This document shows positions 3,589-23,380 of a stretch of DNA of 28,050 bases, piece after piece; the stretch's first letter is position 1, and every line of letters starts with the position of its first letter. The position numbers and the translations under genes are program-made. The notes under the pieces were generated by a model, which had not been told where the DNA came from, did no database searches, and was given only the letters and a program-made list of their open reading frames with translations. This stretch comes from Bacteroidota bacterium (GTDB taxonomy: Bacteria > Bacteroidota > Ignavibacteria > Ignavibacteriales > Melioribacteraceae): the NCBI GenBank assembly GCA_021812745.1, contig JAKAMS010000001.1, forward strand, positions 1 to 28,050, written 5' to 3'.

Positions 3589-4905
3589 ATGTTCTGGATA
3601 AGCAAAACCATACATTATCTAAGCAGGTTTAAGCGCCGCACAATATTACTTTTTGCTGTTATAGGTCCCGGTATAATAACAATGGTTGCCGATAATGACG
3701 CGGGCGGCATATCAACTTATGCGGTAACCGGTTCAAAGTATGGATTCAATTTGCTTTGGGTATTTTTCATTCTCATACCGATGGCTTATTTTATTCAAGA
3801 GATGACGGTTCGTTTGGGCGCAGTAACAAAACGCGGTCATGCTGAAGCAATCTTTGACGGTTTTGGAAAATTTTGGGGATGGTTTTCAATTTTTGATCTT
3901 GCTGTTGTTAATTGGCTTACTCTGGTTACAGAGTATATCGGTATGACAGAAGCAATGCTGATGTTTGGTGTTCCTCCGTGGATTACATTTCTATTTGTAA
4001 CAGCAATTTTGATGATGGTTGTTCTTTCCGGTAAATATTGGACGTTCGAAAAAATTACACTATTGTTTTGCGTTTTCAATCTTGTTTACATACCTGCAGC
4101 ATTATGGGCAATGGACACGCCTACAGCACCGGGCTGGGGTGCAGTTGCGGGTGGCTTTATCAATCCAAAATTTCCAGGCGGATTAACACAAGACTTAATT
4201 TTTATTGTGATGGCAAATATTGGAACTACAATTACTCCATGGCAAATATTTTTTCAACAGAGTGCAGTTGTTGATAAAGGAATGGATGTAAGAGATATTA
4301 AGTATGGCAAGATAGACACACTGGCTGGTTCAACATTAACCGGTATTGTCGCAGTTTTTATTATTATCGTTACAGGCGCCGCATTTTATTATCACTCTCC
4401 GCAAATAATCATTCAAGACGCAAAACAATCTGCAGATGCTTTGGTTCCTTTGCTTCCACACGGGCAGGGAGATTGGGCTCGGAGATTATTCGCAATCGGT
4501 CTTTTCGATGCTGGTTTTCTTGGTGCTTTATGTATCTCGCTTTCAACATCCTGGGCGGTAGGAGAAGTATTTGGCTGGGCACACTCTCTTAATAAAAGCG
4601 TAAAGGATGCACCATGGTTTTACGTTGTTTATCTTGGAACCTTAGCAACCGCAGGCGCTATTGTGCTGATTCCAGGCGCACCGCTAATTACAATTACAAT
4701 GTTCGTTCAGGTTGTAGCAGTTACGTTATTACCCGCGGCGTTAATGTTTCTGATTCTGCTTTTGAATGATGAAAATTTGATGGGCGAATACAAAAACACC
4801 AAGACACAAAATATTATCAACTGGGGAATTACAATTTTTGTAGTTCTTATCTCAACACTCTTTGGCTTAACTATCCTATTTCCCGAATTCATTAAGTTAG
4901 TGTAG
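3589..4905 (+). CDS. Nramp (SLC11)-family divalent cation transporter with non-canonical metal site
   Basis: A 438-residue polytopic inner-membrane protein with Nramp hallmarks: IGPGII leading into TM1, SKYGFNLLW after it, and a TM6 unwinding region. The canonical TM1 DPGN reads DAGG (D37-G40): the ligand Asp is kept but the Asn is Gly. The canonical TM6 A-T-x-M-P-H reads T-T-I-T-P-W (213-218), so the Met that favours soft transition metals is Thr and the usual His is Trp. Loss of this Met is a known feature of Nramp-related magnesium transporters (NRMT) and of some other divergent members. The start ATG follows GGGGA. The next gene, 10 bp on, is an MgtE-like regulator, which supports Mg2+ as substrate. 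Family is firm; Mg2+ specificity is inferred. Confidence 0.9.
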   Translation: MFWISKTIHYLSRFKRRTILLFAVIGPGIITMVADNDAGGISTYAVTGSKYGFNLLWVFFILIPMAYFIQEMTVRLGAVTKRGHAEAIFDGFGKFWGWFSIFDLAVVNWLTLVTEYIGMTEAMLMFGVPPWITFLFVTAILMMVVLSGKYWTFEKITLLFCVFNLVYIPAALWAMDTPTAPGWGAVAGGFINPKFPGGLTQDLIFIVMANIGTTITPWQIFFQQSAVVDKGMDVRDIKYGKIDTLAGSTLTGIVAVFIIIVTGAAFYYHSPQIIIQDAKQSADALVPLLPHGQGDWARRLFAIGLFDAGFLGALCISLSTSWAVGEVFGWAHSLNKSVKDAPWFYVVYLGTLATAGAIVLIPGAPLITITMFVQVVAVTLLPAALMFLILLLNDENLMGEYKNTKTQNIINWGITIFVVLISTLFGLTILFPEFIKLV

Positions 4906-4915
4906 GAGAAAATTT

Positions 4916-6199
4916 ATGGCACAATTAAATAATCATACTATTAAGATGCACGAGTTGCCATCGGGTACAAAAGAATTTAGATTTTTAAATTTTCTCGAGC
5001 TTATCAAACTGCCAGTTTGCGCCGGAAAGATCAAAGACAAGATCGGAAAGGTTACAGATATTGTTTTTAAGCTTAGCGAACCATTCCCCGAAGCAATTGG
5101 AATTTATATAGAACATGGCTGGGGAAAACCCACAGAATTTGTCCAATGGGATAAAGTAATAAAGATTGAGGATGACGCGATTTTTGTTCAGAAACTTGAA
5201 GAAGGAAAAACTTATCCCCCTTTTGTTGATCAGCCCGGATGGATTTTAGTAAATGAGCATTTAATCGGTAGAACAATTCTTGATATGGATGGAAGAAGAA
5301 TTGAAGTAGTTAATGATGTTCATCTTCTTGAAACAAAAGAAAAAATGATAATCGTTCATGTTGATATTTCATTCAATGGATTCTTGCGAAAGTGGGGTTT
5401 CAGAAGAATAAGAGTGATGAAAGATCAGCTTATACCATGGAAATATGTTCAGCCGTTATCGCTCGAAGATGCGGGAAGCAAAGATAAAGTTTCACTTTCC
5501 ATTACCAGAAATCAAATCAAAGAATTGCCGGCAGAAGACCTTGCAGATGCTCTTGAAGAACTTTCAGGTGAAGAGCAGCAGGCGGTCTTTTCCGCACTTG
5601 ACTCAGAGACTGCGGCAGAGACATTAATAGAAGCTGAGCCCCGGGCTAAAAGACAACTGATGTCAAATCTCCGCAAGGAAAGAGCACAAAATATTTTATC
5701 AGAAATGTCAATTCCTCAGCTTGCTAATTTGTTTTCTGTTCTTCCTAACGACGATGTTATTGAATTAATACAATTGGTTCCGGAAACCGACGCAGAAAAA
5801 ATCAGCAAGATCCTTTCGGAGAAAGAAGAAACTGCCCGTGTAATGATGACATCTAATTATGTTGCAGTACCAAAAGAAAAAACTGCCGGAGAAATCTTAA
5901 AATCATTAAAAGGCATGGATGTTGACCGGAGTAATATATCATACATTTATATAACCGCTCCCGAGGACAACACTCTTCTTGGCGTAGTTGATATAAGAGA
6001 ACTTGTTATTGCGCCGGATGGGACTTTGCTGGCAGATATAATGGTCTCCCCGGTTGTTACAGCGGAAGAGGAAGATCTTAGAGACGATCTTGAAGAATTA
6101 TTTGCTAAATATCACTACAGAATGATCCCGATTGTGGACAGACACGATAAACTTCTGGGCGTCATTAAAGATAAAGATATTTTGGCAGGGGCAGATTAA
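4916..6199 (+). CDS. MgtE-like soluble regulator: PRC barrels, MgtE_N and two CBS domains, no membrane channel
   Basis: A 427-residue hydrophilic protein. Residues ~30-110 and ~115-185 look like two PRC-barrel-like beta modules (KIGKVTDIVFKL; IGRTILDMDGRRIEVVNDVHLL). Residues ~205-305 match the MgtE_N superhelix (LPAEDLADALEELSGEEQQAVFSAL, then short repeated helical units). Residues ~310-427 hold a CBS pair, with LLGVVDIREL and LLGVIKDKDIL as the two typical CBS endings. In MgtE channels, the N domain and CBS domains bind Mg2+ and gate the pore; the five-helix pore is absent here. AGGAGA precedes the ATG. Its position 10 bp after the Nramp gene suggests it senses cytosolic cation and gates or stabilises that transporter. 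Domains are well supported; the partnership is inference. Confidence 0.88.
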   Translation: MAQLNNHTIKMHELPSGTKEFRFLNFLELIKLPVCAGKIKDKIGKVTDIVFKLSEPFPEAIGIYIEHGWGKPTEFVQWDKVIKIEDDAIFVQKLEEGKTYPPFVDQPGWILVNEHLIGRTILDMDGRRIEVVNDVHLLETKEKMIIVHVDISFNGFLRKWGFRRIRVMKDQLIPWKYVQPLSLEDAGSKDKVSLSITRNQIKELPAEDLADALEELSGEEQQAVFSALDSETAAETLIEAEPRAKRQLMSNLRKERAQNILSEMSIPQLANLFSVLPNDDVIELIQLVPETDAEKISKILSEKEETARVMMTSNYVAVPKEKTAGEILKSLKGMDVDRSNISYIYITAPEDNTLLGVVDIRELVIAPDGTLLADIMVSPVVTAEEEDLRDDLEELFAKYHYRMIPIVDRHDKLLGVIKDKDILAGAD

Positions 6200-7591: not shown

Positions 7592-7834
7592 TTAGAAATA
7601 CTTTTTAGAAAATGCTCTGCCGGAATGACTCTTCAAGTATTTTTCAAAGGAATACGCTTTGTGTTTATCTGAGAATGAAATTGCAGTAGTGAGTCGCCAA
7701 GGTTTGTATTTTGATGTATGAGGCGATCCCCCTCGATTATGTTTGTCTAACCGTCATTTAAGATTTGTAGTACAACCGACATAATAATTTTCGTGATAAT
7801 TAATACTTTCTAATATGTAGATGTAATAAAACAT
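7592..7834 (-). pseudogene. GIY-YIG nuclease-like gene interrupted by an in-frame TGA
   Basis: Reading the minus strand from the ATG at 7834, an 81-codon frame gives MFYYIYILES, then YYVGCTTNLK, a TGA at 7754-7756, then RLDKHNRGGSPHTSKYKPW, and later KAYSFEKYLKSHSGRAF before a TAA at 7592-7594. This is a near-complete GIY-YIG domain of the small UvrC-like/YhbQ type: YYIYIL corresponds to GIY, YYVGCT to YIG, and RLDKHNRG carries the usual Arg/His. Relatives usually have LKxRL at the break, so TGA most simply replaces TGG (LKWRL). One base separates it from an intact gene, so it is a young pseudogene or a sequence error. Confidence 0.8.
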
Positions 7835-9976: not shown

Positions 9977-10834
9977 CTAATATTTTCTAAACCATCTTGG
10001 GTTTCTATCCGATATGTAAAGCTGTCTCTTCACACTCCAATAAAACGGAATCGAATCTAGAACGCGTATTGAATAAAGTGAGTCTTGCAGAGTACTTTTC
10101 GAAAATAGAAATTCATAATAATCCGGAAATTTATCATTGTTAATATTTGCAAGCGTTCTTTTTAAGGCAATTCCGTTATAAGTTTCCATAAGATGAGGTG
10201 GTTTTCGCCAGCCATCAACCATAAAGAAGTTATAATTTCGATGACCTGAGATAATTCCATCTTCATAATTCATTTCAACGTACTTAATATTTTTTGCGCT
10301 CCAATTTTTGATCGAAATTCGATTGAAGCCGCCATGAATTGGAACTTCCGACTCCCAGAGTTTTTCGAACTGTCCATCTTTGCACTCAAATAAAGTCAAC
10401 CAGAAAAAAGCAGTGCCCAGTTTTGTGCTGTCTAAATTTATATAACTTGATTCATACCCGACTACATTTTGTGTCTCGATGTTGCGTTCGCTAGGTTTTG
10501 ACTTAGCAATTACAGCAAGAACAAAATTTCCGCCGTCTCTGAAATAAACAACCGCTTCCTTCGGTACATTGAAAGTGTAAGTTCTATCAAACTGAACAAG
10601 ATAAGTTCCTTTATCATAATTGTTGAGAATAAATTCTTTTAAAGAGATAGTATCGCACTCAAACCGGTTCTTAGTCTGTTCTTTCTGAATATCTAGATTG
10701 TAATTTCTAAGCTGTTCATCTTTAGCGCTTGAAGTAGCGGCATCGCCTCCCACTTCCCCCTTTTTGGATGTACATGATATAAGAGCTATCAATCCCAAAA
10801 GAGAAACCACTATAAATAATTTATAGAGTTTCAT
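9977..10834 (-). CDS. Predicted lipoprotein of unknown function
   Basis: A 285-residue protein with a signal peptide and lipobox ALIS-C21 followed by TSKKGEVGG, so it should be lipidated at Cys21 and placed in the inner or outer membrane. The rest is a beta-rich domain with several aromatic residues (DKGTYLVQFDRTYTF; FFWLTLFECKDGQFEKLWESEVP; NYNFFMVDGWRKPP). No family is recognised. AAGGA precedes the ATG. It lies between the M20 peptidase gene (about 43 bp upstream) and ygfZ (23 bp downstream), all on the minus strand. The gene is convincing; no function can be assigned. Confidence 0.8.
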   Translation of the reverse strand: MKLYKLFIVVSLLGLIALISCTSKKGEVGGDAATSSAKDEQLRNYNLDIQKEQTKNRFECDTISLKEFILNNYDKGTYLVQFDRTYTFNVPKEAVVYFRDGGNFVLAVIAKSKPSERNIETQNVVGYESSYINLDSTKLGTAFFWLTLFECKDGQFEKLWESEVPIHGGFNRISIKNWSAKNIKYVEMNYEDGIISGHRNYNFFMVDGWRKPPHLMETYNGIALKRTLANINNDKFPDYYEFLFSKSTLQDSLYSIRVLDSIPFYWSVKRQLYISDRNPRWFRKY

Positions 10835-15173: not shown

Positions 15174-17390
15174 TTATTTTGATTTCATCTCGAAAACACC
15201 ATCCCAGTTTTCATTCGGAGGATTCTTAAGATAGAATTCGCAGCGCTGCATATAAACTTTAGAAGGATAATCGCCAAGTTTTTCAAATGATCTTTTGAAA
15301 TAATTTTGTGCGGCTTCAAAACTCCGGTTGCGGTATAAATCTATAGCTTGAAAATATAAATCCATCTCTTCTATTGCACCCTCAGCTTTTTTATCACCCA
15401 CAACACTTATTAATTCATAAACTTTAGTCGGTTTGCTTTTCCCTTTTACACGAATTATATCTAACTCTCTAGCAAGAATTTTCTCTTTGCACTTTTCAAG
15501 AGTGGATTCGCCAATCATTATATTTGTTCCATATTCTTTATTGGCACCTTCAAGTCTCGAAGCTAAATTTACATCATCACCAAGAACAGTATAATCAAAA
15601 CGTTTAACTCCGCCAATGTTGCCAACAATTACATCGCCACTATTAATTCCAATTCTAATTCGAATTTGGGCTTCACTGCTCTTGGACCATTTTTCTCTCA
15701 TCTCAGCTAATTTATTCTGCATTTGTAAAGCAGTTAGACATGCTTTATAGGCATGGTCTTCAACTTCAATTGGCGCGCCCCAAAAAGCCATTACAGCGTC
15801 GCCCAGATATTTATCAAGTGTTCCTTCATTTGTAAGAACAATCTCAGTCATCTCATTTAAGTACTCGTTAATAAAGCTAACCAGTTCTTCCGGCAGTTTG
15901 TTTTCAGCAAATGTTGTGAAGCCCGCAATATCACTAAATAGAACCGTTACATTTTTCCTTTCGCCGCCAAGACGCAGTTTATCGGGATTTAACAAAAGCT
16001 CATTAACCACATTCTTGCTTACATACTGACTAAACATTCCTTTAATCAAAACATTCTGCTGACGTTCACGCAAGAAATGATATGCCGTGCTGCTAAAGTA
16101 GCCAACAATTACAGCAATAGAAGGACTTACAATTGCTATTACAAGTTTGTTATGAATAAAAAGGTGAATACTCAGTTCATAAATTCCAGCGACAAGAAGA
16201 ATGATAAAAATTACGTTTAACACTTCTACGAAAAGACCTATTCTAAACTTTATCTTTCTAATAAATGAAGAGATATAAAATGCGATAGCAGTTAACAGGA
16301 AAACCGAAAGGAGTTCACTTTCTTTGGACTGTTTGAAGAGAAAATCATTACTAAGAATATTTTGAATTATGTTGGCGTGGAATTCAACGCCGTAAATCAG
16401 ATTATCCCCTTTGCGCTTTCCTTCAGCAAAAGAACAGGCGAGCAAATCTCTGTCTTCCGGCATTGTGGAACCAATAATTACAATTTTATCCTTCAATTTA
16501 CCGCTCTGAAGAATGCCGTAGCCCGGATCGTCCCATGTATTGATGTCAATGCCGGAATTAATTTCATAAATCGTCTTAAAATTTTTGTCATCAATAACAT
16601 CCATAAGTTTTACATACGGGAATGTTTCACTTGGACCGTAGAAATTTATTAAGACGGTTGTCGCATCAAACTGCGGAATTTTTTTCTCGCCAAGCTGAAA
16701 GTAACCGTTTTTTCTCTCTGCCGTTAAACCGTTTTTTAATCCATAATATTTATTTAGCAGGGCAAAACCGAAACTCGGAATCCTTTTTTGTGTTATATCA
16801 GTATATCTAAATGGTAAATATCTGCGGAAGACTTTATCAAAATCCGGCGGCGGCTGAACAATTCCTACTGAACTGTCAACACCATAAAACATATTTCCAT
16901 AATCTTCATTAGTTTTTATAACATTTGTTTTTCTTTGATCAATCTGTCCTTCAGTCGTCTCATCAATTTTTCCCGCTAGAACAACTTTGCCGGATTTTCT
17001 GATAGCACGCATCATTAATGTATCATTCTCCGGAGAAAATGGGTCCTCGCCCGGCATCTCAATATCAATCCCGATTGCCTTTACTCCTGCTTTAGTCAAA
17101 TTTTCTATTGCTTTTGCGTAAATAAATCTTGGAAACGGAGACTTATTATACGGGGGTGGAATTTGATCGAACAGATCCTGAGTCATTTCAACAATTATTA
17201 CTTTAGAGGAATCGGCAATATCAATCTTTCCCCTTTTAAGAAATCTTTGATCAATTAATTTTAATTCCAGTTCTTTGAGAGGCGAGAAATTGAAAAGATA
17301 ATCTTGCGTAAGAAGAATAGTGAAAAGAGCGGCGGAAAGTACAACTGCAAATTTCTGGATCAACCCTTTTCCTTTAGAACCGCCGCTCAT
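15174..17390 (-). CDS. CHASE2-domain class III adenylate cyclase
   Basis: A 738-residue membrane protein: TM1 at ~12-28, a large extracytoplasmic CHASE2 sensor at ~35-345 (with VIIVEMTQDLF, AIGIDIEMPGEDP and DKIVIIGST), three helices at ~356-435, and a cytosolic cyclase domain at ~477-660. Metal-binding aspartates are D487 (LFSDIAGFT) and D531 (KYLGDAVMAF). K527 and T601 (FDYTVLGD) are the purine-specifying pair; Thr in place of Asp is typical of class IIIb adenylate cyclases. N608 and R612 stabilise the transition state. Thus it should make cAMP under control of a periplasmic signal. The last ~75 residues are helical and TPR-like. It is the last gene of a four-gene unit, 15 bp after the barrel-like gene. 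Domain call is firm; the ligand is unknown. Confidence 0.93.
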   Translation of the reverse strand: MSGGSKGKGLIQKFAVVLSAALFTILLTQDYLFNFSPLKELELKLIDQRFLKRGKIDIADSSKVIIVEMTQDLFDQIPPPYNKSPFPRFIYAKAIENLTKAGVKAIGIDIEMPGEDPFSPENDTLMMRAIRKSGKVVLAGKIDETTEGQIDQRKTNVIKTNEDYGNMFYGVDSSVGIVQPPPDFDKVFRRYLPFRYTDITQKRIPSFGFALLNKYYGLKNGLTAERKNGYFQLGEKKIPQFDATTVLINFYGPSETFPYVKLMDVIDDKNFKTIYEINSGIDINTWDDPGYGILQSGKLKDKIVIIGSTMPEDRDLLACSFAEGKRKGDNLIYGVEFHANIIQNILSNDFLFKQSKESELLSVFLLTAIAFYISSFIRKIKFRIGLFVEVLNVIFIILLVAGIYELSIHLFIHNKLVIAIVSPSIAVIVGYFSSTAYHFLRERQQNVLIKGMFSQYVSKNVVNELLLNPDKLRLGGERKNVTVLFSDIAGFTTFAENKLPEELVSFINEYLNEMTEIVLTNEGTLDKYLGDAVMAFWGAPIEVEDHAYKACLTALQMQNKLAEMREKWSKSSEAQIRIRIGINSGDVIVGNIGGVKRFDYTVLGDDVNLASRLEGANKEYGTNIMIGESTLEKCKEKILARELDIIRVKGKSKPTKVYELISVVGDKKAEGAIEEMDLYFQAIDLYRNRSFEAAQNYFKRSFEKLGDYPSKVYMQRCEFYLKNPPNENWDGVFEMKSK

Positions 17391-17405
17391 AATTTATTCG
17401 TCATA

Positions 17406-19817
17406 TTAGATTGTTACTCTTGCTGTTAACCCGATGATTGAATTAGTTGCTGAATCCGGGATTCTATAAATTCTAAACTGAAACATTAAGTTAAGATTTA
17501 GCAATACGTTATAATCTGCCGTGAACTCAAGTGCTTGCCTCTTAAAATCTCCAAAACTTGGACTTAGATTTGCTGTAAGCTGTAATTTATTTTCCAGCAG
17601 TCTATATCTTCCGCCAACGTTTAGCGTGAAGTAATTAAAAGCAATTCCTTTGATATCACTTGCGCTATATACAAAACCAAACAATGACATCAGCGATTGA
17701 GTCCAATAACTATTTACATTAAGAGAAGTTGAATTAAATTTTGCATTCGTCATTGCCAAACTTTTATCGTCTCTGGTAGATGTTGTAAATGAAAGCGAGC
17801 TGTTATGTTTAACTACTGCTACAAAATCATAAGATAATTGTAATAGAATTCTATTTGTCACGTCATCAACAGCATACTGCCCGTTTGTAGGATCGGAGGT
17901 TTTCAGATTGTTATTGTTTAAATATTGATTGTAACCAATCGTAATGTTAGGAAAATTCGTCCTCGGAAAGATTGAAACTGATGCGCTTAGAGTTTGATAT
18001 GTAGTTGTAGCAATTTTAGTTTTTTGAAGATTATCTTGCAAACTTTCGTAACCGAACGACACGAATAATTTATTATCGAACATTCTGAATCTATCAACAA
18101 GATTTAAACCCTTCACATCGGTTCTTAAAAATGATTGACCGAATGATTGAAATTCGTTACCGCGATAGATATACGAAGCACGAAGAGAATTATTAAAATA
18201 GTTGAGTGCTAAGGCAGCTTCTGCAGCAAGTGAAGAAAGTTCCTGAGGGTTCCATGGACCGATATACTGATTTACAGTAATAAATTTACCAAGAATGTCT
18301 CTAGCTTTTTTTACATTGCTTGGATCAACATTAAAATTACCATTCGGTCCAAATACAGAATCAATTTGTGCGTCTGTTAAATTTCCGCTTGAAATATCTT
18401 TATTATAAACATCTACTGCCGCTTGAGATGTAAATAAAATATTCTGATTATCAAAAGCGAACATCAAGTCGGTGCCAATAACAATATTTTCTTGAGGGCG
18501 GGCGCCAAATTCAATAGAATTTTTATCGTCTTTAGAATGCAAATAACTTATACCAAATTGGAAATTTTCTCCGCTTCCAAATGAAGGTCTAATTGCAAAA
18601 ATTGTTCTGTTATATGTACCAAGTTCAACTTTGCCAAACGAAAAACCATTGTATTTACTACTATTGATTGGAATAATATCATTTCCCAAGGGGGCGCTAC
18701 CGGAAGTATATTTCTCCAACAAAGTACCTTCTACCTCACGCGCTGTTTGTCCTGAGGTTACTTGTACATTTATAAATCCCAAATTAACCGCGCCTGTAAA
18801 ACCACGGACACGTTTACCATCCATTATTAAATTTGGAAAACGAGGGAATGCATCTCCAATTTTCAAATCGAGCCAATCACCGCCTTGTAGTGAAGCAGAA
18901 AATCTATTGTATGGTTGTAAATTACTTTTTTCCTCTGAAGTTAAATAAGCATAACCATTCATCTTCCATTGATCAATAGAACCGTTAAATTCCGCAGCAA
19001 TATTATTTCTCCAAACCGATTCAGAACCAAAACTTTCACTACGAGATTCACCCATAGCGTAGCCATTGTATTTCCATCTTGAACTTACAGCCATAGCAAC
19101 TTCAGCTGAAACTGTTTCAAAACTTCTGGAAATAGAATTGTACAAATTTCCTTCTTTGTCATAAACCTCTACTTTCAGCAACTTGGAACCATAACTTACT
19201 TTACCGCCAAGATTTTCTGCGCTGAGAACTATTAAATCTCCGGCAATTAATTCGCTCGATGAAACATCCACATTGTTTAAGAAAATTTTGGTTTTTTTAA
19301 TGTCAACTATATCCGGCGCCTTTATGAATGAAATTGATATCAAAAAATCTTCTTCGGACATCAATTCACCATCGTTTGGACTTAGAATTATAACTTCTTT
19401 ATCCTTCTGTGAGACTGAAGAAACAGCTATTTGTAAAGGATTAACTCCTTTTTCAACGTCCAAAGGATAAGTCTGAGTTGAACCGTCTTTGATTCTAATT
19501 ATCAAATAATATTCAATATAAGGCGGTTGTATTATATCTGCAGGTAATGTTACAGATGCTGTATTACCGGCAACAAGCATCTCCGATTGTTTAAATTCAT
19601 TTTGACCGAATGATTTGTAGGCAATGCTTATATTGGAAATATTATCCGATGAGAACAACTCTGCTGAAATTGATAGCGGAGTTTTTTCTTTTGCGTCGCC
19701 AAACTTTACTGATGATATTATGTTGCTGATCTGTCCGGACGTTTTTTCATTTGTAAGAAAAATTAAAAACAGACCGAAAATAAATACTTCCTTAAAGATT
19801 ATTTTTTTTCTATTCAT
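17406..19817 (-). CDS. Large exported protein with Ig-like N-terminus and probable outer-membrane beta-barrel
   Basis: About 803 residues. The ATG at 19817 has GAGGA 7 nt upstream; a TTG at 19829 in the same frame would add four residues but includes that ribosome site, so I reject it. A signal peptide ends near TSGQ. Residues up to ~240 read as two beta-sandwich (Ig-like) repeats, the second opening with ILSPNDGELMSEEDFLISISF. From there to the C-terminus the chain alternates polar and hydrophobic residues in many aromatic-rich strands with N/G/D-rich turns, as in outer-membrane barrels, ending ...IIGLTARVTI rather than with the usual aromatic. No family name can be given. It sits between a FecR gene (27-39 bp away) and the CHASE2 cyclase gene (15 bp). 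Confidence 0.8.
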   Translation of the reverse strand: MNRKKIIFKEVFIFGLFLIFLTNEKTSGQISNIISSVKFGDAKEKTPLSISAELFSSDNISNISIAYKSFGQNEFKQSEMLVAGNTASVTLPADIIQPPYIEYYLIIRIKDGSTQTYPLDVEKGVNPLQIAVSSVSQKDKEVIILSPNDGELMSEEDFLISISFIKAPDIVDIKKTKIFLNNVDVSSSELIAGDLIVLSAENLGGKVSYGSKLLKVEVYDKEGNLYNSISRSFETVSAEVAMAVSSRWKYNGYAMGESRSESFGSESVWRNNIAAEFNGSIDQWKMNGYAYLTSEEKSNLQPYNRFSASLQGGDWLDLKIGDAFPRFPNLIMDGKRVRGFTGAVNLGFINVQVTSGQTAREVEGTLLEKYTSGSAPLGNDIIPINSSKYNGFSFGKVELGTYNRTIFAIRPSFGSGENFQFGISYLHSKDDKNSIEFGARPQENIVIGTDLMFAFDNQNILFTSQAAVDVYNKDISSGNLTDAQIDSVFGPNGNFNVDPSNVKKARDILGKFITVNQYIGPWNPQELSSLAAEAALALNYFNNSLRASYIYRGNEFQSFGQSFLRTDVKGLNLVDRFRMFDNKLFVSFGYESLQDNLQKTKIATTTYQTLSASVSIFPRTNFPNITIGYNQYLNNNNLKTSDPTNGQYAVDDVTNRILLQLSYDFVAVVKHNSSLSFTTSTRDDKSLAMTNAKFNSTSLNVNSYWTQSLMSLFGFVYSASDIKGIAFNYFTLNVGGRYRLLENKLQLTANLSPSFGDFKRQALEFTADYNVLLNLNLMFQFRIYRIPDSATNSIIGLTARVTI

Positions 19818-19856
19818 TTTATTCCTCAAATGGTTTAAGGAACTCTATAAAAATAT

Positions 19857-20564
19857 TTATTTATTTTCTGACGAGTAATATTCTATTTCAATATCGCCAA
19901 GTTTGGTCTTAATCTTTACTTTCTTCGTATTTGTATTTTTTATTGAATTATTCTTGTTTTTATCTTCCTGCGATTGCGGTGTAATACTGATATTTCCGGA
20001 ATTATCAATCCTCGCAGTATTTCCTGCTGTAAGAGATCCACTTTTTTTATCTCCTTTCAGAGATTCAAAATCAACTTTGCCTCTGTCTAGTCTTATTACG
20101 GTAGAGTTATTATCATCAACTTCAAGAGAACCTTCAGTGCCGCGTATTGAAGCAACCGCAGTCGGAGTTGTGAATTTAAATTCTTCATCTTCTTGTTTGT
20201 TTACTTCGAAACCGATTGTGCCTTTAGTAAGAACTGTATTTTTATTATCCAGTTTTTTATTACCCGACTTTCCGTAAACATTGAGGATTGCATTTTCTCT
20301 AACACGTAAGAGCCCTGAGCCATCTACAAACAAAATAAGCGCTAATGATTTTGGACCAGTCTTAACTTGATCGCCGTCATTTAACGGCAACCCGGTTTTA
20401 GCAGTTTCCCAATCACTTTGCCCACCTTTTTTATATGTAACATCAATTACAATTTTCTTTACCAGGGCAACAGGAGTATCAGCCGGAGCTGCTGATTTCT
20501 TGCCGGAGTTAAAACCCAGCAGTAATGGTATTATAAAAATTAGTAGTAAACTTTTCGCTTTCAT
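19857..20564 (-). CDS. Exported FecR-domain protein
   Basis: A 235-residue protein with a signal peptide (MKAKSLLLIFIIPLLLGF). A FecR-like domain follows: LNDGDQVKTGPKSLALILFVDGSGLLRVRENAILNV, then the diagnostic TPTAVASIRGTEGSLEV and a ribbon of beta strands. Unlike classic FecR anti-sigma regulators it has no N-terminal cytoplasmic segment, so it is likely periplasmic. FecR-domain proteins without a sigma factor often sit beside CHASE2 proteins, as here. The C-terminus is Lys/Asn-rich and ends in KTKLGDIEIEYYSSENK. AAAGG about 10 nt upstream of the ATG is the ribosome site, placed immediately after the stop of the preceding gene. It probably senses or relays an envelope signal to the cyclase two genes on; that role is inferred. 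Confidence 0.88.
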   Translation of the reverse strand: MKAKSLLLIFIIPLLLGFNSGKKSAAPADTPVALVKKIVIDVTYKKGGQSDWETAKTGLPLNDGDQVKTGPKSLALILFVDGSGLLRVRENAILNVYGKSGNKKLDNKNTVLTKGTIGFEVNKQEDEEFKFTTPTAVASIRGTEGSLEVDDNNSTVIRLDRGKVDFESLKGDKKSGSLTAGNTARIDNSGNISITPQSQEDKNKNNSIKNTNTKKVKIKTKLGDIEIEYYSSENK

Positions 20565-20579
20565 AGTTTTATCAACCTT

Positions 20580-21653
20580 TTATTTAGCAGTAAAGTTTAT
20601 TGAAATAAGAGCGTCTTTATGTGTTTCTAAAAATGAAAGTATCTGTAAAAAATCAGATAGAGCGATTGTACGGTTATTTTCATCCGTGATTTGAATTTGA
20701 TCAATAGAAATATTTCCGCTTGATAACTTAGCTACAAATTCTTGGTTGACCTGACCGGAGATTAAATTTGCCAGACGAATTAAATCCGGATTAATATTTG
20801 CAGCATCGGATTGATTGTTGCCGGATTTATTTAATAGGAAAGAAACAGGAGCGCTTTTTAACAAAGTGCCGCCGCCGGGTCCGGATACATATGCGCTTAC
20901 AGAAAGAACAATCCGCTGACCGCTTACCCATTGACGATCTAGAATAGTGCTGAGATTAACAACATTAGCAGTTCCAACATCTTTATCCTTGATCAACGGG
21001 TCGCCGCCATTCAGAGCTTCTTCTAAACTGGAATTACCTTCGGGCACTACGTTAGCACGAACAATATAACTCGTTGCACCAGCAACAGGAGTCCATTGCG
21101 CTTGAACATTACCAACATCGTATGAACTTCCATCTTGAGGTGATAGAATGGAAATTGTCTGAGCAGGGTTCAAAAAATCAAAATCTCTTGGAAAAGGAAG
21201 TTGGCTTAAAAAATTCCCATGGTCATCATATAACTGTAATGTTATTCTAATCACACCGGTGGGCTTTCCTCTTTTAGCTAATTCTTCGGCAAGATTTTTA
21301 TCGCCATCTATTGATTCTAGTCTGATATCGGAGTTACCAACATCTGCATTAGTAAAACTTCTCGCCTTAAAAACTTTTGTCTTGAAATTAAATATTTCGC
21401 GGAAACTACTGCTCAAGTCCATTTTCCAGTATGCTTGTCCCTGCACGACAACATTCATACCTTCCGGAACAATGGTTATTTGAAAAATTCTTGGCTGGTT
21501 GCTAAGATCATTAGAAATTAAAAATGCGCCTAAATCAACAGTACTTAAATCCTGGAAGACTTCTAAACTGATTTGAGGCGTCTGTGCTCTTAATAATAAG
21601 GAAGTGTTAAAAAAAAGAAATAGAGTTGTTAAAAAGATGCTTGCCCTTCTCAT
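20580..21653 (-). CDS. Secreted protein with fibronectin III-like domain
   Basis: A 357-residue protein with a signal peptide ending near LLLRAQ (residue 23). The first ~160 residues are beta-rich and end with PFPRDFDFLNP. From ~165 a fibronectin-like domain begins with the common ISILSPQDGSSYDVGNVQAQWTPVAGATSYIVRANV pattern and runs to ~275 (SAPVSFLLN). A helical tail (DLIRLANLISGQVNQEFVAKL) follows. No enzyme motif is present. GGGAG lies before the ATG. It is the first gene of the unit with FecR, barrel-like protein and CHASE2 cyclase (15-bp gap to FecR). A ligand-binding or adhesive role in the periplasm or at the surface is plausible but not shown. Confidence 0.82.
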   Translation of the reverse strand: MRRASIFLTTLFLFFNTSLLLRAQTPQISLEVFQDLSTVDLGAFLISNDLSNQPRIFQITIVPEGMNVVVQGQAYWKMDLSSSFREIFNFKTKVFKARSFTNADVGNSDIRLESIDGDKNLAEELAKRGKPTGVIRITLQLYDDHGNFLSQLPFPRDFDFLNPAQTISILSPQDGSSYDVGNVQAQWTPVAGATSYIVRANVVPEGNSSLEEALNGGDPLIKDKDVGTANVVNLSTILDRQWVSGQRIVLSVSAYVSGPGGGTLLKSAPVSFLLNKSGNNQSDAANINPDLIRLANLISGQVNQEFVAKLSSGNISIDQIQITDENNRTIALSDFLQILSFLETHKDALISINFTAK

Positions 21654-21780: not shown

Positions 21781-21806
21781 AAAAGAGGTTCTCAAAAGAG
21801 AACCTC
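21781..21806 (-). terminator. Rho-independent terminator of the DUF3467 gene
   Basis: GAGGTTCTC and GAGAACCTC form a perfect 9-bp stem around a TTTT loop on the minus strand, directly followed by TTTTCC. It lies about 6 bp after the DUF3467 stop codon. Confidence 0.85.
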
Positions 21807-22219: not shown

Positions 22220-23380
22220 TTATTTGTATTGTTCGGCTTTCTTATATGCTTCTTCAGCTTCTTTCTTCATACCAAGGTTTGCATAAACCTGTGCTAGACT
22301 CGTCCACACTCTGCCTTCAGTCGGTTTAATTTCCAAATATTTTTGAAGATATGGAATAGTCTCTCTAAACTTTTCTAAGTACGATTTATCGTTATCTTCT
22401 TTTTTTAGCGCTACCTCTCTTAGATCATTGCCCCAGCTGATATATGTAGCGGCTAAATTATAATTAGCGTCTAGATTATTAGGATCCATTTTAACAACTT
22501 CTCCAAGAACTTTTGTTGCTTCTTCATATTTTTTAGATTTTAGAAGAACAACACCATAAGCATATTTTATTTCTCTGTTAGTAGGAGTTCTTTCTGATAA
22601 AGTCTTGAATGACTCCATAGCTACATCCAACTTGTCAGAAATATAATAAGCATTTCCTAGTTGGAGAAGTATATCGGCATCTGTTGGGAATTTTTCTCTT
22701 CCTTTTTCTAGTACAGAAACTGCTTTGCCGTACCATTCAAATGCTTTCACACTATCAGCCGCATTTTTTGATGTGGAGTATGAATCCATTAAGTTAGAAC
22801 CCTTTAGCAAATAAATCTGTCCCAATCTTGAAAACGCAAATGCAGGTTTACCCATTGAAGTTAATTTTTCCAATACAGGTACAGACGCATCAGTTTCTCC
22901 CATATTTAGATATGAAGCGGCAACATTTTCATAACCTATTGAAGAATCCGGTTCGCAAGCAATCGAATTATTAAATTGTTCGATCGCTTTTGCAAAAAAT
23001 ATTTTCATGCTGTCCGGTTTACTAGTCTTAACTGCATTATTGAAGAATCCAACACCTTTGTTAAAACTTGTCTGCCATGTATATTTCTTATAATCAATAA
23101 TTTGCAGTTCAAATTTTTTGCTTATGGCAAGAGATTTGTCGAATGCTTTCAACATTTCTGTAACGTTTCCTTCTTCACTGTAAACGCCGCCTAATAAAAA
23201 CCATCCTTCATCACTCTTAGGGTTTTTTTCAACTTCTTTAAGCAAGGTCTCTTTGGCTTTTGCATATTGCTTATGTTGGAGATACATCTTTGCGCCGGTT
23301 AATTCAGCAGATGCGCATTCGAATGCTGTAAATCCTAAAACCATACTTAAAAGACTTAAACCAATAAGTACTTTTTTCAT
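22220..23380 (-). CDS. Exported TPR-repeat protein
   Basis: A 386-residue protein with a signal peptide (MKKVLIGLSLLSMVLGF) and probably cleavage after AFECASA; C22 sits in a poor lipobox, so lipidation is uncertain. The rest is tetratricopeptide repeats: AKMYLQHKQYAKAKETLLKEVEKNPKSDEGWFLLGGVYSEEG, then repeats around residues 120-160, 205-265, 270-310 and a final VWTSLAQVYANLGMKKEAEEAYKKAEQ. TPR arrays mediate protein-protein contacts in the envelope. AGGAGA precedes the ATG. It ends in a strong terminator and starts next to a divergent gene (add). No specific partner can be named. Confidence 0.88.
   Translation of the reverse strand: MKKVLIGLSLLSMVLGFTAFECASAELTGAKMYLQHKQYAKAKETLLKEVEKNPKSDEGWFLLGGVYSEEGNVTEMLKAFDKSLAISKKFELQIIDYKKYTWQTSFNKGVGFFNNAVKTSKPDSMKIFFAKAIEQFNNSIACEPDSSIGYENVAASYLNMGETDASVPVLEKLTSMGKPAFAFSRLGQIYLLKGSNLMDSYSTSKNAADSVKAFEWYGKAVSVLEKGREKFPTDADILLQLGNAYYISDKLDVAMESFKTLSERTPTNREIKYAYGVVLLKSKKYEEATKVLGEVVKMDPNNLDANYNLAATYISWGNDLREVALKKEDNDKSYLEKFRETIPYLQKYLEIKPTEGRVWTSLAQVYANLGMKKEAEEAYKKAEQYK

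What the first reader, a model, noticed from the sequence alone, without database searches (positions are those of the whole stretch)
15174..21653. Four-gene envelope-to-cAMP signalling unit (secreted Fn-like, FecR, barrel-like, CHASE2 cyclase)
Seen: four minus-strand genes with gaps of about 15, 27-39 and 15 bp. Three are exported and the fourth joins a large extracytoplasmic CHASE2 sensor to a class III cyclase. Known: FecR and CHASE2 proteins often neighbour each other. Inference: the barrel and Fn-like proteins add a surface or outer-membrane part, so that a signal at the cell surface is passed through FecR to CHASE2 and read out as cAMP. No characterised system with all four parts is known to me.
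Basis: partly seen in the sequence, partly recalled or inferred. Interest (0 to 1): 0.7.

Follow-up and report, generated by a model that had tools for sequence, protein, structure and literature searches.

The report
Outer-membrane-to-cAMP four-gene signalling module
Four neighbouring genes that stay together widely in one class of bacteria (Ignavibacteria and close kin) look like a single signalling chain that runs from an outer-membrane barrel through the periplasm to an inner-membrane enzyme making the messenger cAMP; pieces of this kind are known elsewhere, and this complete set was not met in the papers searched.

The parts
20580..21653 (-). FN-like exported protein, 357 aa: signal peptide, two Ig/FN3-type beta domains (about 25-160 and 162-279), then a helical tail
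19857..20564 (-). Exported FecR-domain protein, 235 aa, without an anti-sigma part
   Evidence: Pfam FecR 7.2e-11, residues 65-164; upstream of the barrel within 1.5 kb in 105 of 106 assessable loci
17406..19817 (-). Outer-membrane beta-barrel protein, 803 aa
19083..19730 (-). Two N-terminal Ig-like domains of the barrel protein (residues about 30-245)
   Evidence: Secondary structure; first domain homologous to a C-terminal domain of 15 divergent FecR proteins; weak match to peptidylarginine deiminase residues 331-408, E 0.013-0.017 (that this is its Ig domain is recalled)
17409..19073 (-). Barrel domain, residues 249-803, about 26 strands (my count from the secondary structure; not settled)
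18234..18401 (-). 56-residue helical insertion between two barrel strands (residues 473-528), candidate plug or lid
   Evidence: Mean column entropy 1.00 against 1.15 for the whole barrel and 11 of 56 positions invariant in 35 sequences, so only a little more conserved than average; some shorter loops are more conserved (0.46-0.81). Role is inference.
15174..17390 (-). CHASE2 adenylate cyclase, 738 aa
   Evidence: CHASE2 and Guanylate_cyc Pfam matches; downstream of the barrel within 1.5 kb in 106 of 110 assessable loci
16287..17300 (-). CHASE2 sensor domain (residues 31-368) between hydrophobic stretches 9-33 and 358-436
15417..15956 (-). Class III cyclase domain (residues 479-658)
   Evidence: D487, K527, D531, T601, N608, R612 each invariant in 48 of 48
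21785..21806 (.). Perfect 9-bp hairpin between DUF3467 and the FN-like gene, possible upstream boundary of the unit
   Evidence: pattern found on the + strand; on the minus strand it is followed by only four T. 6 such sites found in the stretch against 5.0 expected, so weak.

Best explanation
The four genes encode one trans-envelope signalling module with cAMP output. A ~26-strand outer-membrane barrel holds two Ig-like domains in the periplasm. The exported FN-like protein and the FecR-domain protein bind there, probably by Ig-Ig contacts. FecR then touches the CHASE2 domain of the inner-membrane cyclase. A change at the barrel (ligand, cargo or assembly state) alters the FecR/FN-like complex and so switches the cyclase; cAMP acts through CRP-type regulators. 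Shown here: the parts, their conserved linkage and co-occurrence, the barrel prediction, invariant catalytic residues, and homology of an Ig domain between barrel and FecR proteins of divergent lineages. Inferred: localisation, physical contacts, direction of signalling, ligand and targets.
For: Order and short gaps conserved down to 37% barrel identity (L052). In 112 loci FecR upstream in 105 of 106 and cyclase downstream in 106 of 110 assessable. Co-occurrence in 391 genomes 158/3/17/213, Fisher p 6e-85, but the genomes are related, so not a real probability. In four loci where the cyclase is not linked (L049, L054, L059, L064) FN-FecR-barrel stay together and the same genome still holds the cyclase on another contig. 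Barrel fold. Ig domain shared by 15 FecR proteins and the barrels; no other family hit at E<=10 among 6954 ORFs from these loci. Six catalytic residues invariant 48/48. Residual mirror-tree correlations FecR-cyclase 0.52, FecR-barrel 0.49, barrel-cyclase 0.36, FN-like with the three 0.20-0.30; TPR control 0.08, -0.17, -0.26, -0.19 with FN-like, FecR, barrel, cyclase (18 loci). cNMP-binding proteins in 16 of 16 genomes tested, but also in 10 of 14 controls. Precedent: in S. meliloti the outer-membrane protein NsrA is needed for signals that act through the CHASE2 cyclases CyaK and CyaD1/D2 (passages: PMC7529298, PMC13001267).
Against: Two related genomes (G058, G066) have dxr-rseP-cyclase with none of the three envelope genes at the locus and no barrel match in the genome (at most two candidates per genome were scored there), so the cyclase can be kept without the barrel. 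13 genomes with only a weak barrel match (E 8e-4 to 4e-9) have no cyclase at 1e-60. No complex could be predicted. The window's own FecR lacks the shared Ig domain. Raw mirror-tree correlations of the barrel are higher with flank genes (LptG 0.77, DUF3467 0.75) than with FecR (0.63). A FecR gene of S. [quoted passage not shown] In 5 loci (L068, L070, L073, L075, L086) the exported ORF upstream of FecR could not be tied to the FN-like family, and in L103 and L044 none was found.
Confidence: 0.55

Rival explanations
1. Envelope-state monitor: the cyclase reads whether the barrel/FecR/FN-like complex is correctly assembled (envelope integrity or stress) and not an outside ligand. FecR would bind free, unassembled barrel Ig domains.
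For: In many loci the unit sits next to envelope genes: LptF/LptG or an rseP-type M50/PDZ protease. The Ig domain shared by FecR and barrel fits an occupancy sensor. No TonB plug or other known ligand domain was found in the barrel by Pfam.
Against: The neighbouring housekeeping genes differ between lineages; a large dedicated barrel conserved over its whole length suggests a function of the barrel itself.
Confidence: 0.25
2. Conduit or exporter: FN-like, FecR and barrel form an outer-membrane transport or secretion device (Mtr-barrel- or usher-like), and the cyclase only controls or accompanies it.
Against: No CxxCH in the sequences of the four families examined and few cysteines outside the cyclase, so no Mtr-type haem conduit of their own; no chaperone or cargo gene in the unit; the cyclase occurs with the barrel in 158 of 161 genomes.
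Confidence: 0.13
3. Chance or inherited linkage of unrelated genes.
For: Flanks are also syntenic in many of the closer relatives, and raw tree correlations with flank genes are high.
Against: The four genes stay while flanks change; co-occurrence; shared Ig domain.
Confidence: 0.04

Closest known systems
Sinorhizobium meliloti NsrA - CyaK/CyaD1/CyaD2 - Clr
   Same: Outer-membrane beta-barrel protein required for cAMP signalling by CHASE2-domain cyclases, read out by a CRP-family regulator (passages)
   Different: No FecR or FN-like partner is described as part of perception in the passages seen; NsrA was not compared by sequence (its paper is not held). Here the parts lie in one conserved unit with a periplasmic FecR protein.
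Campylobacterota CHASE2 adenylate cyclase clusters
   Same: CHASE2 cyclase clustered with a FecR-domain protein, proposed as one pathway (passage in PMC9239204)
   Different: Those clusters hold a cAMP phosphodiesterase and a TPR protein; the FecR protein is called an outer membrane protein and no separate Ig-barrel is named. Here no phosphodiesterase is in the unit.
Burkholderia BiofilmReg operon (RR - LysM/FecR - CHASE2 histidine kinase - DUF4136)
   Same: FecR protein next to a CHASE2 sensor with another output domain (passages of PMC5192318)
   Different: Output is a two-component system and no outer-membrane barrel is described
FecA-FecR-FecI cell-surface signalling
   Same: Outer-membrane barrel, periplasmic FecR domain, inner-membrane step (works-like; recalled, with a short description in PMC5498481)
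   Different: No TonB plug/STN match, no anti-sigma FecR, no ECF sigma gene in the window; output is cAMP
Outer-membrane barrel of the Mtr complex (6r2q_B, taken as MtrB from recall)
   Different: 12% identity, no Pfam match for the window barrel, no haem motifs in the four families

Membership tests
Class III adenylate cyclase with CHASE2 sensor | CHASE2 and Guanylate_cyc domains above cut-off | tested here: met
   139 bits (cut-off 26.3) and 107.8 bits (cut-off 21.9)
Class III adenylate cyclase with CHASE2 sensor | Two metal Asp, adenine-selecting Lys and Thr/Asp, Asn and Arg (residue roles recalled) | tested here: met
   D487, D531, K527, T601, N608, R612 each 48 of 48, (window plus 47 of the 53 loci with a cyclase; L002, L003, L005, L034, L038, L055 left out as incomplete or suspect)
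Class III adenylate cyclase with CHASE2 sensor | cAMP made on stimulation | not testable with these tools
   needs an assay
Campylobacterota-type CHASE2-AC/FecR cluster | FecR-domain protein clustered with the CHASE2 cyclase | tested here: met
   FecR and cyclase lie in one unit with the barrel between them
Campylobacterota-type CHASE2-AC/FecR cluster | cAMP phosphodiesterase in the cluster | tested here: not met
   No cyclic-nucleotide phosphodiesterase domain among the 19 window proteins scanned (a PHP-domain gene lies far off at 530-1579)
Campylobacterota-type CHASE2-AC/FecR cluster | TPR protein in the cluster | tested here: inconclusive
   A TPR gene lies two genes upstream (22220-23380), but its distances do not follow the four genes and many loci show no hit for it
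NsrA-type receptor | Outer-membrane beta-barrel | tested here: met
   Predicted model and fold match; not measured
NsrA-type receptor | Sequence homology to NsrA | not tested
   NsrA sequence not at hand; paper not held
FecA/FecR/FecI cell-surface signalling | TonB-dependent receptor with plug and signalling (STN) domain | tested here: not met
   No Pfam family at E<=0.1 for the window barrel; in 20 divergent members only two single weak matches, Porin_4 and DUF7840
FecA/FecR/FecI cell-surface signalling | FecR with a cytoplasmic anti-sigma part | tested here: not met
   Only PF04773 above its cut-off; N-terminus is a short hydrophobic leader
FecA/FecR/FecI cell-surface signalling | ECF sigma gene nearby | tested here: not met
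   None among the 19 window proteins scanned plus the two LptF/LptG genes
MtrB/PioB | Mtr-type barrel fold | tested here: met
MtrB/PioB | Sequence family membership | tested here: not met
   No such Pfam match; A1 profile finds no Mtr chain at E<=10
MtrB/PioB | Multihaem cytochrome partner in the unit | tested here: not met
   0 CxxCH in 47 FN-like, 48 FecR, 35+20 barrel and 48 cyclase sequences; genes elsewhere in the genomes not searched

The most novel reading that the evidence does not exclude
A plug-free, sigma-factor-free counterpart of FecA-FecR-FecI with cAMP output: a ~26-strand outer-membrane barrel, gated by a helical insertion, passes its state by an Ig-domain handshake to a periplasmic FecR protein that directly gates a CHASE2 adenylate cyclase. 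It would be a CHASE2 system in which every trans-envelope part is encoded in one unit, and it would suggest how barrels such as NsrA reach CHASE2 cyclases.
Probability: 0.3. Interest if true: 0.75.

Novelty: new variant of a known kind. Interest (0 to 1): 0.55.

Why it matters
How an outer-membrane barrel can switch an inner-membrane CHASE2 cyclase across the periplasm is, as far as the passages seen tell, open even in S. meliloti. This unit names all candidate parts, shows that they are kept together widely in a bacterial class, and gives a testable contact (a homologous Ig domain in barrel and FecR). A record named Stygiobacter electus strain 09-Me, not labelled a MAG, carries the unit (L023).

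Tried and rejected
Mtr-type electron conduit: suggested by the best fold match, rejected as the main reading because the four families have no haem motif. TonB-dependent receptor: no plug or STN match. Artefact of close relatives only: rejected by changing flanks. FecR beside other CHASE2 proteins: exported ORFs next to the CHASE2 cyclases of L118 and L123 and near the CHASE2 proteins of L117 and L122 gave no FecR match in Pfam, so a general FecR-CHASE2 pairing is not supported by those four paralogues. Two divergent upstream ORFs (A7: L070, L086) could not be linked to the FN-like family by profile, 9.6%. NCBIfam gave only sub-cut-off matches. Spread beyond the class: the phylum-wide search did not complete. 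Among the listed protein hits that bear a name (120 of 592 and 120 of 589 listed; most have none), names are Ignavibacteria-type taxa, Melioribacter(aceae), Stygiobacter, Bacteroidetes/Bacteroidota or 'bacterium'. Exact strand number and sidedness of barrel loops could not be settled, because model coordinates are not given.

Full report
WHAT IS THERE. The window is from an Ignavibacteria-like genome: the closest full locus, L001, matches the barrel at 91% in a MAG labelled Bacteroidetes bacterium, and many other records are labelled Ignavibacteriales, Ignavibacteria, Melioribacter(aceae) or Stygiobacter. No whole genome is held for the window. Four minus-strand genes lie at 21653-15174 with gaps of 15, 39 and 15 bp. 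The cyclase has CHASE2 and Guanylate_cyc domains and the second protein a FecR domain; the FN-like and barrel proteins match no Pfam or NCBIfam family.

CONSERVATION OF THE UNIT. A scan of the genome collection (one genome for each of 84,980 species, by the tool's description) with a 35-sequence barrel alignment gave 56 loci. By tblastn with the window's proteins all four genes are in the same order in 45 of 56; of the 11 others, 8 are cut by contig ends and 3 are real exceptions (L044, L049, L054). Median gaps are 16, 44 and 9 bp. L034, among the 45, is broken; its LptG is broken as well, so an assembly error is likely. I then fetched 60 regions, chosen mostly for low barrel scores, and tallied 112 loci (L111-L114 left out) with profile HMMs, counting a partner on the same strand within 1.5 kb (FN-like within 3 kb): FecR upstream in 105 (1 absent, 6 cut), cyclase downstream in 106 (4 absent, 2 cut), FN-like in 84 (18 not recognised, 10 cut). 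Of the 18, 17 have FecR, and 16 of these 17 have a same-strand ORF of 355-411 residues right before it; 11 match a profile of the divergent FN-like set A6 (E 3.5e-35 or better; 5 of the 11 built it), 5 do not (L068, L070, L073, L075, L086); L103 shows none. A6 matches the window-type FN-like profile at 98.6% probability, E 7.7e-16; A7 (L070, L086) does not, 9.6%.

CO-OCCURRENCE. In 391 genomes of the class of G004 the barrel profile matches 174 (161 at E<=1e-60) and the cyclase profile 175 at E<=1e-60 (at most two candidates per genome were scored). Both occur in 158, strong barrel only in 3, cyclase only in 17, neither in 213. None of the 13 weak-barrel genomes has the cyclase at that cut. 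Of the three barrel-only genomes, G031 and G358 have the barrel's downstream end within about 110 and 145 bases of a contig end. Genomes are related, so the Fisher p (6e-85) overstates the case. In G009, G011, G120 and G382 the cyclase lies on another contig while FN-FecR-barrel stay together.

EXCEPTIONS THAT COUNT AGAINST. Four genomes have a strong cyclase (E<=1e-140) without a strong barrel (G050, G058, G066, G155). In G058 and G066 the order is dxr, rseP-type protease, cyclase, with no room for the other three (the protease ORF ends at 7770 and the cyclase ORF begins at 8012 in L126); in G050 the contig ends just upstream; G155 was not fetched. FN-like and FecR elsewhere in these genomes were not sought. 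In other divergent loci the unit follows the same protease gene (L070, L075, L086, L089, L106, L108, L109; in L090 also dxr). Pfam was run on L106, L090 and L126 only; the others were named by eye. The two genomes therefore look like joint loss of the three envelope genes, and the cyclase can be kept without them.

EVIDENCE FOR CONTACT. A profile of the barrel's first Ig domain (residues 28-135) finds, among 6954 ORFs of these loci, only barrels and FecR proteins at E<=10: 15 FecR proteins of divergent lineages carry it after the FecR domain (whole-protein E 2.6e-12 to 2.1e-5, eight of the 15 sequences). The count of 19 in that output is of domain rows, not proteins. The window's FecR lacks it. 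A mirror-tree test on 18 loci, after removing the mean of four flank genes, leaves FecR-cyclase 0.52, FecR-barrel 0.49, barrel-cyclase 0.36, FN-like with the others 0.20-0.30, TPR control 0.08 to -0.26. Before removal the barrel correlates more with LptG (0.77) and DUF3467 (0.75) than with FecR (0.63). This is suggestive, not a proof.

MECHANISM. Best reading: barrel (and FN-like) at the outer membrane, FecR in between, CHASE2 cyclase in the inner membrane, cAMP out, CRP-type proteins as readers (cNMP-binding proteins in 16 of 16 genomes and in 10 of 14 controls). The order and direction are inferred. The main rival is a monitor of envelope assembly.

WHAT IS KNOWN. S. meliloti: perception of signals 1 and 1' requires the outer-membrane protein NsrA and the inner-membrane cyclases CyaK and CyaD1/D2 (PMC7529298, passages); CyaD1, CyaD2 and CyaK are CHASE2 cyclases and NsrA a beta-barrel (PMC13001267, passages). 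[quoted passage not shown] Burkholderia: LysM/FecR protein beside a CHASE2 kinase (PMC5192318, passages). Searches for CHASE2 with FecR and adenylate cyclase, CHASE2 with FecR, Ignavibacter with CHASE2, CHASE2 with outer membrane, periplasmic and adenylate cyclase, Melioribacter with cyclase, and any two of 'CHASE2 domain', 'gene neighborhood' and 'cyclase' (12 of 182 listed) showed no title or abstract start describing this four-gene unit; most subscription papers are not held.

VERDICT. A real module conserved widely in the class; new variant of a known kind; interest 0.55.

Noticed in passing
L117:5867-8326, L119:5142-7655, L120:4629-7112, L121:4912-7416: CHASE2 domain fused to a sigma-54 activator (AAA) domain in one protein of 819-837 aa, i.e. 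a membrane sensor with a transcription-activator output; 4 of 4 scanned.
   Followed up: partly
L126 and L127: dxr - M50/PDZ protease - CHASE2 cyclase with no FN-like, FecR or barrel gene between them; apparent joint loss of three genes.
   Followed up: yes
L070, L075, L086, L089, L090, L106, L108, L109: In divergent lineages the module lies downstream of an rseP-type gene (in L090 dxr-rseP), unlike the window, where it lies between DUF3467 and LptG/LptF.
   Followed up: partly
window 4916-6199: MgtE_N + CBS + PRC-barrel protein right after an Nramp transporter gene (3589-4905); looks like a regulator or partner of the transporter.
   Followed up: no
window 9977-10834: 285-aa protein with no Pfam match between M20 peptidase and GcvT-like genes.
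   Followed up: no
L034: The module is broken in this genome (FecR piece, barrel fragment, large gaps), and so is LptG; likely assembly error.
   Followed up: no
L044:2033-6678: Barrel and cyclase with no FecR or FN-like hit upstream; the ORF before the barrel matched none of the four families.
   Followed up: partly
L122:6481-7710: Short CHASE2 protein (409 aa) for which Pfam found no output domain, followed by exported-looking ORFs.
   Followed up: no
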